NCBI RefSeq assembly: GCF_037094465.1
Contig: NZ_CP146609.1
Span: 3,219,501-3,283,500, forward strand
Direction: 5' to 3'
DNA: 64,000 nt
Origin: Pseudodesulfovibrio sp. 5S69
GTDB lineage: Bacteria; Desulfobacterota; Desulfovibrionia; Desulfovibrionales; Desulfovibrionaceae
Shown here: positions 3,317-5,138 of the stretch, one piece after another
How the letters are laid out: each line of letters opens with the position of its first letter
Numbering within the stretch: the stretch's first letter is position 1
Translations under genes and position numbers: made by a program
Notes under the pieces: generated by a model
What the model saw: the letters and a program-made list of their open reading frames with translations, nothing else
What the model was told of the DNA's origin: nothing
Database searches by the model: none

Positions 3317-3634
3317 ATGTTCTTTAACCCGCCTCTACACAGCGACGACGAGGCATTTCTGGCCAACGTCTGTAAAGGTCTGGCTCACCCCGCCCGCATC
3401 CGCATCCTCAGGCAGCTACTGACCGAACACAGCTGTACCTGCGGGCACCTGGTCGAGGGGCTGCCCCTGGCCCAGTCCACGGTCAGCCAGCACCTCAAGA
3501 TCCTTAAGGAATCCGGACTGGTGCGCGGCGAGGTGGAAGGCCCCCGGACCTGCTACTGCGTAGACCGCGAGACCGTGAGCCGATTCGGTCCGCTCATCCG
3601 GGCGCTCCTGGCGATCACCCCGGAGGCGGCATGA
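3317..3634 (+). CDS. ArsR family metal(loid)-responsive repressor, first gene of the hgcAB operon
   Basis: The 105-residue protein is a single winged helix-turn-helix domain of the ArsR/SmtB family: a GLAHPARIRILRQLL helix, then the recognition helix LAQSTVSQHLKILKESGLV. Two cysteine pairs stand out. Cys40 and Cys42 (SCTCGHL) lie where ArsR proteins hold the alpha-3 CxC metal site. Cys79 and Cys81 (CYC) lie in the wing strand. This suggests derepression on binding As(III) or another thiophilic metal; which one cannot be read from the sequence. GGAGAG precedes the ATG. Its TGA overlaps ATG 3631 of the extended hgcA (ATGA), so the two genes appear translationally coupled. ArsR-like genes beside hgcAB have been noted in other methylators. 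Confidence 0.9.
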   Translation: MFFNPPLHSDDEAFLANVCKGLAHPARIRILRQLLTEHSCTCGHLVEGLPLAQSTVSQHLKILKESGLVRGEVEGPRTCYCVDRETVSRFGPLIRALLAITPEAA

Positions 3635-4839
3635 CCCCCCGTGTTCCCAAGCCCGCCGAAGCATCCGCCCTCGACCCCCTGGGGCTGATGGCGCCCCTCG
3701 ACGCCATCCCGCCCACCGCCTGCGCGCCCGACTCGCCCCAGAACGACGCCCCTTGTTGAGGCCCCAGGCCCGACCCCCGTGCCGGGGTCTTCGAAAAACC
3801 GGGATACGCCGTCGAGCCGTTCGTGGACGGGTTCGTGGACACGCCCGCCGGGCCGGTCCCGCGCGTGCGCACCCGCATGCTCCCGTCCGACCGGCTGGGC
3901 ACGGCCCTGACCAGGCTGGGGGCGATCCGCAGCCGTTACAAGGTAGTGCCCGGCCTGTACTGCGTGGGAGACCCCACCCCGGATTCGCCGGTCCTGGTCA
4001 CGGCCAACTACAAGCTGACCTTCGACGCGGTGCGCCGCGAGCTGGCGGGCATCGACGCCTGGCTGTTGGTCGCGGACACGCGCGGCATCAACGTGTGGTG
4101 CGCGGCGGGCAAGGGGTTGTTCGCCACCGACGAGATCGCCTTCAGCGTGAATCGGGCAAAGCTCCACCAGGTGGTCTCCCACCGCGAACTGGTCCTGCCT
4201 CAACTCGGGGCAACGGGCGTGTCCGCGCGCGAGGTCCGGAAGGGATGCGGCTTCAAGGTGGCGTGGGGGCCGGTGCGGGCCGAGGATTTGCCCGAATTTC
4301 TCGCTGACGGGAACCGGGCGGACCGGGACATGCGCATGGTCGCCTTCCCTCTGAAGGAACGGGCCGTGCTCATCCCGGTGGAGCTGTTCCTGCTCTGGAA
4401 ACTCCTGGCCTGGACCCTGCCCGCGCTCTTCCTGCTCTCGGGCATCGGCCCGGACTTCTTCTCGCTGTCCGGACTCTGGCACCGGGGGCTCAACGCCGTG
4501 GCGGCCACCCTGTTCGGCGTCCTGGCGGGCTGCGTTGCGGTGCCCCTGCTGCTCGACCGGCTGCCGTGGCGCGCGTTCTGGCCCAAGGGCGCGCTCACCG
4601 GCGCCGCAGCCGGACTGCTCGCCGCTGCCCTGCTGCCCCTGCGCGGATGGCTCGAACCGGCCGCCGTCCTCCTGTGGACCGCGACCGTATCGTCCTACCT
4701 GGCCATGAACTTCACCGGTTCCACCCCCTACACCTCGCCCTCGGGCGTGGAAAAGGAGATGCGCCGGGGCATACCGCTCCAGGCGCTGGCCGGGCTCGCG
4801 GCCCTGATCCTGTGGCTAACTGCGCCGTTTCTCAAGTAA
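3631..4839 (+). CDS. hgcA: Mercury methylation corrinoid protein HgcA, proposed selenoprotein with in-frame UGA (conventional start GTG 3823)
   Basis: HgcA is the membrane corrinoid protein that passes a methyl group to Hg(II). From GTG 3823 the product has 338 residues. The cap-helix motif NVWCAAGK puts the cobalt-ligating cysteine at residue 93, the number I recall for strain ND132. About five membrane helices follow from residue 170, as in the family. I place the start at ATG 3631: GGAGG lies 4 nt upstream, ATGA overlaps the arsR stop, and no start codon or ribosome binding site lies near 3823. The frame is the same and is interrupted only by UGA at codon 43, after Cys42. Residues 59-83, spanning the GTG, read continuously into FVDGFVDTPAGPVP, which I recall as conserved in HgcA. 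Full length would be 402 residues with the cap Cys at 157. Identity is very secure; the extension with Sec is an inference. Confidence 0.88.
3757..3759 (+). other. In-frame UGA, proposed selenocysteine codon 43 of hgcA
   Basis: TGA directly follows a TGT codon, which would give a Cys-Sec pair. It lies in the frame shared by ATG 3631 and GTG 3823. The 21 codons between the UGA and the GTG end in G or C 17 times out of 21, the same bias as the surrounding coding sequence. Ordinary termination, giving a 42-residue peptide, is the alternative reading. Confidence 0.6.
3760..3789 (+). promoter_or_regulatory. SECIS-like hairpin downstream of the hgcA UGA
   Basis: GACCCC (3772-3777) pairs with GGGGTC (3784-3789) around the 6-nt loop CGTGCC. 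The loop begins 18 nt after the UGA, has G as its second base, and contains a GU step. These fit the usual description of bacterial SECIS elements: apical loop about 16-37 nt after UGA, with G among its first two loop bases. No experimental support is available here. Confidence 0.5.
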
Positions 4840-4850
4840 AGGAGGCCGTG

Positions 4851-5138
4851 ATGAAAAATTTCCGCTACCTGGAAGGCGTGGCCACCCTGGCCCTGAATAC
4901 GGACACCTGCATAGGCTGCGGCTCATGTGTGGAGGTCTGCCCCCACCGCATTCTCGAAATGCGCGGGAAAAAGGCCGCGATCCTCGACCCGGACGCCTGC
5001 ATGGAATGCGGGGCCTGCGCGACCAACTGCCCGGTCCGGGCGGTCACGGTCACGCCCGGCGTGGGCTGCGCCTCCTACCTCATCTCGGCCTGGCTGCACC
5101 GGCTGACCGGGCGCAAGACCGACTCCGCCTGCTGCTAG
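4851..5138 (+). CDS. hgcB: Mercury methylation ferredoxin HgcB
   Basis: HgcB is the 95-residue ferredoxin partner of HgcA, thought to reduce its corrinoid and to handle Hg. Two complete 4Fe-4S motifs are visible: Cys20, 23, 26, 30 (CIGCGSCVEVCP) and Cys50, 53, 56, 60 (CMECGACATNCP). Beyond them are the conserved Cys73 (GVGCASY) and the C-terminal pair Cys94-Cys95, the residues reported as important in ND132. GGAGG lies just upstream of ATG 4851, 11 bp after the hgcA stop, so the two genes are one transcript. The stop overlaps by 3 bp the end of the convergent hydrolase gene, leaving no room for a separate terminator. Confidence 0.96.
   Translation: MKNFRYLEGVATLALNTDTCIGCGSCVEVCPHRILEMRGKKAAILDPDACMECGACATNCPVRAVTVTPGVGCASYLISAWLHRLTGRKTDSACC

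What the first reader, a model, noticed from the sequence alone, without database searches (positions are those of the whole stretch)
3631..4839. HgcA as a candidate selenoprotein: in-frame UGA after Cys in an N-terminal extension
Seen: ATG 3631 has GGAGG 4 nt upstream and overlaps the arsR stop. The same frame continues into HgcA with one interruption, UGA 3757-3759, after TGT. There is no start codon between the UGA and GTG 3823, and GTG 3823 has no ribosome binding site. The codon-end GC bias continues across the UGA. Residues GYAVEPF just before the GTG read into the DGFVDTPAGPVP stretch that I recall as conserved in HgcA. Established: many Desulfovibrio relatives make selenoproteins. Inference: HgcA is 402 residues, with Cys42-Sec43, and the usual 338-residue annotation is truncated. 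A Cys-Sec pair would bind Hg(II) very tightly, which would bear on the mechanism of Hg transfer alongside the HgcB Cys94-Cys95 pair.
Basis: partly seen in the sequence, partly recalled or inferred. Interest (0 to 1): 0.95.

Follow-up and report, generated by a model that had tools for sequence, protein, structure and literature searches.

The report
Selenocysteine in mercury-methylating protein HgcA
An in-frame UGA near the start of this bacterium's mercury-methylation gene hgcA sits at the same place in its close relatives and is matched by a cysteine codon in most other hgcA genes examined, so it is likely read as selenocysteine, and the enzyme is predicted to be 64 residues longer than usually annotated, with a cysteine-selenocysteine pair that would bind mercury; that some HgcA proteins may contain selenium is already in print.

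Summary
UGA 3757-3759 follows Cys42 in a frame from ATG 3631 (GGAGG 4 nt upstream) into hgcA. Of 28 HgcA loci found in the own genome and 59 relatives, 27 carry TGA exactly here, always after Cys; the 28th contig is cut short. In 80 further named loci the site is TGA in 34, Cys in 44, Arg in 1, cut in 1; no TAA or TAG. A bSECIS-like hairpin follows (6-bp stem: 80% of cells paired in Sec forms, 38% in Cys forms), though this sequence's free 45-nt fold prefers another pairing. The genome has tRNA-Sec, SelA, SelB and a SelD with its own in-frame TGA. In 3 of 59 Sec-type genes no start codon follows the UGA for 75 codons, so a downstream start cannot be general. HgcA is very likely a 402-residue selenoprotein with Cys42-Sec43; the 338-residue form is truncated. 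The idea is not new: a 2026 review lists HgcA with motif CU, citing Haft & Gwadz 2023. The Hg-handling role is inferred; against it, a ~37-kDa recombinant HgcA, apparently without the motif, gave methylmercury in E. coli lysates.

The parts
3317..3634 (+). ArsR/SmtB-family regulator, stop overlaps hgcA start (ATGA)
   Evidence: NCBIfam NF033788 72.4 bits against cut-off 55; ORF
3622..3626 (+). Shine-Dalgarno-like GGAGG, 4 nt before ATG 3631
   Evidence: sequence
3631..4839 (+). hgcA, full-length reading: 402 residues with Sec43 (stop TAA 4837-4839)
   Evidence: NF040863 433.8 bits against cut-off 275, matching residues 76-400 only
3631..3756 (+). N-terminal extension, residues 1-42, ending in Cys42
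   Evidence: extension present in relatives and in Cys-form homologues; AF2 pLDDT under 50 for residues 1-29
3757..3759 (+). UGA, predicted selenocysteine codon 43
   Evidence: TGA in 27 of 28 loci of own genome and relatives; TGA 34, Cys 44, Arg 1, cut 1 in 80 further named loci
3772..3789 (+). bSECIS-like hairpin: stem GACCCC/GGGGTC, loop CGTGCC, 12 nt after the UGA
   Evidence: alone it folds at -10.2 kcal/mol. The free 45-nt fold prefers another pairing
3760..3822 (+). 21 codons between UGA and GTG, conserved coding (GPRPDPRAGVFEKPGYAVEPF)
   Evidence: pN/pS 0.247; residues 51-60 mean pLDDT 80, 61-70 93
3823..3825 (+). GTG = start of the 338-residue reading, here Val65, first residue of the first predicted strand (65-69)
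4099..4101 (+). Cobalt-ligand Cys (Cys157 in full-length numbering, Cys93 in the 338-residue numbering) in NVWCAAGK
   Evidence: sequence; invariant in A1 and A3; role from PMC7305189 (passages)
4851..5138 (+). hgcB, 95-residue dicluster ferredoxin with GVGC (Cys73) and C-terminal Cys94-Cys95
   Evidence: NF040864 126 bits against cut-off 99

Best explanation
This hgcA has an in-frame UGA that is conserved in its relatives and matched by cysteine codons in most other HgcA genes examined; it is very likely decoded as selenocysteine, which makes HgcA a predicted 402-residue selenoprotein with a Cys42-Sec43 pair that would handle mercury. Ribosomes would start at ATG 3631, coupled to the arsR stop. 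SelB with Sec-tRNA would recognise the hairpin 3772-3789 and insert Sec at UGA 3757-3759 (inferred from conservation and covariation, not observed). The pair sits in a predicted flexible N-terminal arm just before the corrinoid domain. The most likely mechanism is that the pair captures Hg(II), or takes away CH3Hg+, near the corrinoid held by Cys157 (Cys93 in the old numbering), together with the HgcB C-terminal Cys-Cys tail. That last step is inference from soft-metal chemistry and position; I give the Hg-handling role about 0.4 and the Sec decoding about 0.93. The stated confidence is for the selenoprotein reading.
For: Same-column TGA in 27 of 28 own and relative loci. Over all 108 loci: TGA 61, Cys 44, Arg 1, cut 2. 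Of 120 listed database homologues, 78 are 365 aa or longer; all 78 have CCG in the arm, 77 at 111 residues before NVWC. Hairpin in fixed register: 80.0% of cells paired against 29-63% when slid, covariation score 0.179 against 0.095 shuffled; 38% in Cys forms. Own genome: tRNA-Sec 79.6 bits, SelA 608.9, SelB 390.1, SelD 329.7 with its own in-frame TGA followed by a hairpin of like placing. No in-frame start codon for 75 codons after the UGA in 3 of 59 Sec forms. 56 of 58 Sec rows of the tree form one clade (SH-aLRT 95, quick search) with no Cys row inside. Phylum sample: Cys-UGA at the site in 35 of 114 loci, own included.
Against: No protein or selenium measurement exists here. The free fold of the 45 nt after the UGA in this sequence pairs GGCCCC (3760-3765) with GGGGTC instead of the short hairpin; by the published rules on the free fold 14 of 59 Sec forms fail, this one included, and 11 of 44 Cys forms pass. 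Sliding the stem by +2 gives more cells with a change on both sides (22) than the stem itself (15), though less pairing. L103 has Cys-Arg at the site. In the phylum sample 15 of 114 loci are open there with Cys but no Cys-Cys and 10 have no Cys nearby, so the pair is not universal. HgcA purified from E. coli ran at 37 kDa, and such lysates made methylmercury (passages of PMC11588087), so the pair is probably not essential to the chemistry. The DNA upstream of hgcA in ND132 was not available to me.
Confidence: 0.9

Rival explanations
1. The UGA is a true stop: 3631-3759 is a leader ORF, and HgcA starts at GTG 3823 or a nearby codon.
For: NCBIfam's HgcA model starts at residue 76; 42 of 120 listed homologues are 311-343 aa long, shorter than a protein that holds the site, such as P0003 and P0026 of 338 aa; the literature numbers the 338-residue form, and the 37-kDa band fits it.
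Against: The extension runs on without a break in Cys-form homologues; at the site the stop is always TGA and always after Cys in the 61 loci; the 21 codons after it are under purifying selection; in L024, L102 and L112 no start codon follows for 75 codons; GTG 3823 has no good ribosome site.
Confidence: 0.04
2. The UGA is read through by another route, such as near-cognate readthrough, and not as selenocysteine.
For: A strong G+C-rich structure follows the UGA, which can promote readthrough in general (recalled).
Against: Exchange almost only with Cys (44 of 45 uncut non-TGA loci of the 108), a hairpin at bSECIS spacing, and a full Sec system with another in-frame TGA in selD.
Confidence: 0.03
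3. Sec43 is real but serves redox chemistry, for example reducing the corrinoid or an oxidised HgcB thiol pair, or acts on a non-mercury substrate, and does not bind Hg.
For: Sec is most often a redox residue (recalled); [quoted passage not shown]
Against: The gene overlaps an ArsR/SmtB-type metal regulator and precedes HgcB, whose own Cys pair matters for Hg methylation. None of this decides it.
Confidence: 0.35

Closest known systems
HgcA selenoproteins, NCBIfam NF040863, motif CU (listed in PMC13188914, which cites Zhang & Gladyshev 2008 and Haft & Gwadz 2023)
   Same: Same family, same Cys-Sec motif; this gene is a further member
   Different: Haft & Gwadz 2023 was not held, so I cannot say which organisms it covered; four search terms found no HgcA-like entry in the main text of the 2008 paper. 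Shown here: TGA in 27 of 28 loci of the window's order, Cys counterparts at the exact column, hairpin covariation, and reversed Sec-Cys order in four loci
Cys-form HgcA (P0036, P0039, L051 and others)
   Same: Full length about 400-410 aa, same N-terminal arm, CCG at the column, same corrinoid and membrane domains
   Different: Cys in place of Sec; the same stem pairs in 38% of cells against 80%
HgcB selenoproteins, NF040864, motif GVGU
   Same: Partner protein with UGA at its key thiol in some species (L101, L105 here)
   Different: The window's HgcB has Cys there; both GVGU HgcBs seen here pair with a Cys-form HgcA
Corrinoid iron-sulfur protein large/gamma subunit (2ycl, 2h9a)
   Different: No cobalt-ligand Cys at this place (PMC7305189, passages); the match covers the corrinoid domain only

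Membership tests
HgcA (mercury methylation corrinoid protein) | NCBIfam NF040863 over its curated cut-off | tested here: met
   433.8 bits (402 aa) and 434.7 bits (338 aa) against 275
HgcA (mercury methylation corrinoid protein) | Cobalt-ligand Cys in N(V/I)WCAAGK | tested here: met
   NVWCAAGK at residues 154-161; Cys157 invariant in A1 and A3
HgcA (mercury methylation corrinoid protein) | Helical membrane domain after the corrinoid domain, and adjacent hgcB | tested here: met
   AF2: five helices between 256 and 401; HgcB NF040864 126 bits directly downstream. Membrane insertion itself was not tested
HgcA (mercury methylation corrinoid protein) | Methylates Hg(II) | not testable with these tools
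   needs an assay
Bacterial selenoprotein | In-frame UGA aligned with Cys in homologues | tested here: met
   TGA 61, Cys 44, Arg 1, cut 2 of 108 loci
Bacterial selenoprotein | bSECIS after the UGA (rules in PMC13188914 Fig. 2: loop 3-9 nt, stem 4-16 bp, G in first two loop positions, 16-37 nt spacing, energy at most -7.5) | tested here: inconclusive
   The local hairpin fits (6 bp, loop CGUGCC, 18 nt from UGA to loop, -10.2 kcal/mol) and covaries across 58 Sec forms, but this sequence's free 45-nt fold pairs otherwise and fails the rules
Bacterial selenoprotein | Genome has selA, selB, selC, selD | tested here: met
   all four over their family cut-offs in the own genome
Bacterial selenoprotein | Selenium shown in the protein | not testable with these tools
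   needs 75Se labelling or mass spectrometry

The most novel reading that the evidence does not exclude
The N-terminal Cys-Sec (or Cys-Cys, or Sec-Cys) pair of HgcA is the enzyme's own Hg(II)/CH3Hg+ transfer site, a second soft-metal pair facing the HgcB tail. It would be missing from the 338-residue numbering, from the deposited HgcAB model, and apparently from the recombinant enzyme, so present mechanisms of mercury methylation describe a truncated protein.
Probability: 0.3. Interest if true: 0.85.

Novelty: new member of a known kind. Interest (0 to 1): 0.5.

Why it matters
HgcAB makes methylmercury, and how Hg(II) reaches the corrinoid is open. If native HgcA carries a Cys-Sec pair, then the residue numbering, the deposited computed model (9a0b starts at full-length residue 74) and, to judge from the 37-kDa band, the recombinant enzyme leave out a conserved soft-metal site, and selenium supply becomes a possible control on methylation. 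Listed database proteins of the nearest relatives also lack the arm (311-343 aa).

Tried and rejected
Sequencing error in this genome: rejected, the TGA recurs in 26 other genomes. A true stop with a leader peptide, or a start at GTG 3823: rejected. Frameshift: not needed, one frame runs throughout. The whole 45-nt free fold as the SECIS: it gives an alternative pairing in this sequence, so the fixed-position stem with slide, shuffle and Cys-form controls was used. Of the 45 Sec forms that pass on the free fold, one (L106) passes by a different hairpin. Rfam near the site: only four matches far below their gathering scores. Whether HgcA-Sec and HgcB-Sec exclude each other: HgcB was found in 98 of 103 loci; GVGU in 0 of 59 Sec-HgcA loci (one of them, L052, not typed by the pattern) and in 2 of 39 Cys-HgcA loci, too few to say. 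Solved structures by sequence: only corrinoid iron-sulfur protein relatives; Foldseek added the 2020 computed HgcAB model. Distance from the pair to the corrinoid: not measured, no coordinates in the Python box. The pattern was too strict and missed 45 of 108 loci; classification was redone, which missed six (L013, L035, L101, L103, L105, L110) that were read.

Rows dropped before counts: L037 (hgcA fragments) and L038 (another family) of the 30 loci; duplicates L040 = L021 and L042 = L022 in hairpin, start-codon and tree work; L035 in the fixed-register stem (one codon shift); L103, L025 and L097 in hairpin work; L036 and L068 in the tree (too short); two of 116 matches were not fetched (G211, G142: the match begins inside the protein).

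Literature: nine searches. Seen: PMC13188914 (passages and the whole of section 5), PMC11588087 (passages), PMC7305189 (passages), PMC12013277 (passages, no mention of HgcA), PMC2398784 (passages for four terms). Haft & Gwadz 2023, Haft & Tolstoy 2025 and Smith 2015 were not held; I know them from citations only.

Full report
Observation. With the TGA read as one residue the protein has 402 residues. The first in-frame start codon after the UGA is GTG 3823, with no useful ribosome site. NCBIfam names both forms HgcA, and its model matches residues 76-400 only, so it does not see the motif.

Conservation in relatives. A search of 60 genomes (the own one and 59 relatives) found matches in 34. 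Thirty loci were returned; L037 (fragments) and L038 (another family) are not usable. Of the other 28, 27 have TGA after a Cys codon 111 codons before the NVWC motif (112 in L035), with the motif C-U-G-P (C-U-D-P in L031); the contig of L025 ends before the site. They span four families of one order by the tool's group codes. The genus is Pseudodesulfovibrio by inference: contigs of same-genus genomes (3,966,573 and 46,046 bases) are those of named Pseudodesulfovibrio proteins P0014 and P0023.

Cysteine counterparts. A scan of named genomes kept the best 80 of 561 loci. Over these 80: TGA 34, Cys 44, Arg 1 (L103), cut 1 (L097) (six loci that the pattern missed were read; in two Cys rows, L099 and L114, the CC is shifted by a few residues). 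With the relatives: TGA 61, Cys 44, Arg 1, cut 2 of 108; two TGA loci are duplicates. No TAA or TAG occurs at the site. Of 120 listed database homologues 78 are at least 365 aa long; all 78 carry CCG in the arm, 77 of them 111 residues before NVWC (P0072 misses only through the pattern); the other 42 are 311-343 aa, too short to hold the site. In the 12-row alignment A1 the columns of Cys42, residue 43 and Gly44 are invariant, Sec being shown as Cys. In a quick tree of 101 rows, 56 Sec forms make one clade (SH-aLRT 95) with no Cys row inside; Sec stands outside it in L035 and L096 only; three changes are the fewest, but well-supported branches force only one.

Hairpin. After the UGA comes GACCCC-CGTGCC-GGGGTC at 3772-3789. 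In fixed codon register the six pairs form in 80% of cells in 58 Sec forms and 38% in 44 Cys forms. On the alignment (55 distinct rows) sliding the partner drops pairing to 29-63%; the covariation score is 0.179 against 0.095 in shuffles, none of 500 reaching it. Less favourable: the number of pairs with a change on both sides is not unusual (124 of 500 shuffles reach it), and a slide by +2 has more such cells (22 against 15). By the published rules (PMC13188914, section 5) on the free fold of 45 nt, 45 of 59 Sec forms and 11 of 44 Cys forms pass; one Sec form, L106, passes by another hairpin. This window's own free fold fails because GGCCCC right after the UGA pairs with GGGGTC; that part would lie in the ribosome during decoding (inference), and the short hairpin alone folds at -10.2 kcal/mol.

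Machinery. The genome holds tRNA-Sec (79.6 bits, cut-off 47; weaker matches to other tRNAs also occur in all 14 control genomes, over the cut-off in 5), SelA (608.9), SelB (390.1) and SelD (329.7, with one in-frame TGA). SelD's TGA is followed by a hairpin with stem from +13 and loop from +20, placed like that of hgcA. SelB exceeds its cut-off in 58 of the 60 genomes, own included.

Alternative start. Of 59 distinct Sec-form genes, L024, L102 and L112 have no ATG, GTG or TTG in frame for 75 codons after the UGA. Pooled over 14 sequences of the genus, pN/pS is 0.247 for the 21 codons after the UGA, 0.316 for the next 21, 0.334 for a core stretch and 0.565 for the 12 codons before the UGA: the arm before the UGA is looser.

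Wider sample. Of 395 genomes drawn from the phylum (own included), 114 had an HgcA match. Of 114 loci read (of 116 matches), the site is Cys-UGA in 35, UGA-Cys in 4, UGA with no Cys neighbour in 7 (five in clearly homologous surroundings, two doubtful: L224, L244), another stop within the same span in 5 (one of them in masked sequence), open with CC in 37, open with Cys in 15, open without Cys in 10, cut in 1. The 'open' classes take any CC or C in a 30-residue span, which may reach beyond the start of some genes. Of the 46 UGA rows ten were scanned against NCBIfam; all ten match HgcA best, two full-length ones over the cut-off, eight N-terminal halves at 224-262 bits against 275 for a whole protein. 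A Sec site is thus common in the sample, and the pair is not universal.

Structure. AlphaFold2 on 61 rows gives mean pLDDT 86; residues 1-29 are below 50, residues 41-50 average 69, 51-60 average 80 and 61-70 average 93; later blocks are at 76 or more except 361-370 (60). Val65 (GTG 3823) is the first residue of the first strand. The deposited computed HgcAB model aligns to residues 74-402 only. The model holds Cys at 43, not Sec.

Mechanism. Shown: a conserved Cys-Sec/Cys-Cys pair in an arm of low model confidence before the corrinoid domain, in a gene between an ArsR-type regulator and HgcB. Inferred: Hg(II) capture or product release by the pair, in exchange with HgcB Cys94-Cys95, which PMC7305189 (passages) proposes for Hg transfer. 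Against an essential role: PMC11588087 (passages) reports ND132 HgcA as a 37-kDa band (36.7 kDa calculated for 338 residues, 43.1 kDa for the window's 402), and E. coli lysates with it made methylmercury; the purified complex did not in their assay, which they put down to Sarkosyl, and its detailed study covers the methylation of cobalt only. The Hg step of the full-length native protein remains open.

Prior knowledge. PMC13188914 lists HgcA (NF040863, CU) and HgcB (NF040864, GVGU) among prokaryotic selenoproteins; for HgcA it cites Zhang & Gladyshev 2008, in whose main text four search terms found no such entry, and Haft & Gwadz 2023, which I could not open. The finding is a good independent detection of a known kind, with a new member.

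Noticed in passing
L170, L193, L199, L200: HgcA genes with the order reversed, UGA directly before a Cys codon (Sec-Cys), 105-107 codons before the cobalt motif.
   Followed up: partly
L177, L198, L214, L215, L232: HgcA genes with UGA at the site but no neighbouring Cys, in otherwise homologous surroundings.
   Followed up: partly
L101, L105: HgcB with GVGU (UGA at Cys73) in loci whose HgcA is the Cys form.
   Followed up: no
L043-L046, L059-L061, L077, L084 and others: A set of HgcBs, many from Desulfobulbales-like bins, have DDGCGC in place of PGVGC and often a C-terminal CxC in place of CC; those seen go with Sec-form HgcA.
   Followed up: no
L103: One HgcA has Cys-Arg where others have Cys-Cys or Cys-Sec.
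   Followed up: no
L136 (G000 745607-746533, minus strand): SelD of the window's genome is itself a predicted selenoprotein (in-frame TGA, KAAGUAAK) with a similarly placed hairpin.
   Followed up: yes
L036 (G039) and L037 (G033): hgcA matched in two adjoining pieces in G039, and as fragments with an in-frame TAG in G033: possible broken genes or assembly faults.
   Followed up: no
P0122-P0241: Many Geobacter-like HgcAs have N-terminal arms packed with repeated CCPP motifs instead of one CCGP.
   Followed up: no
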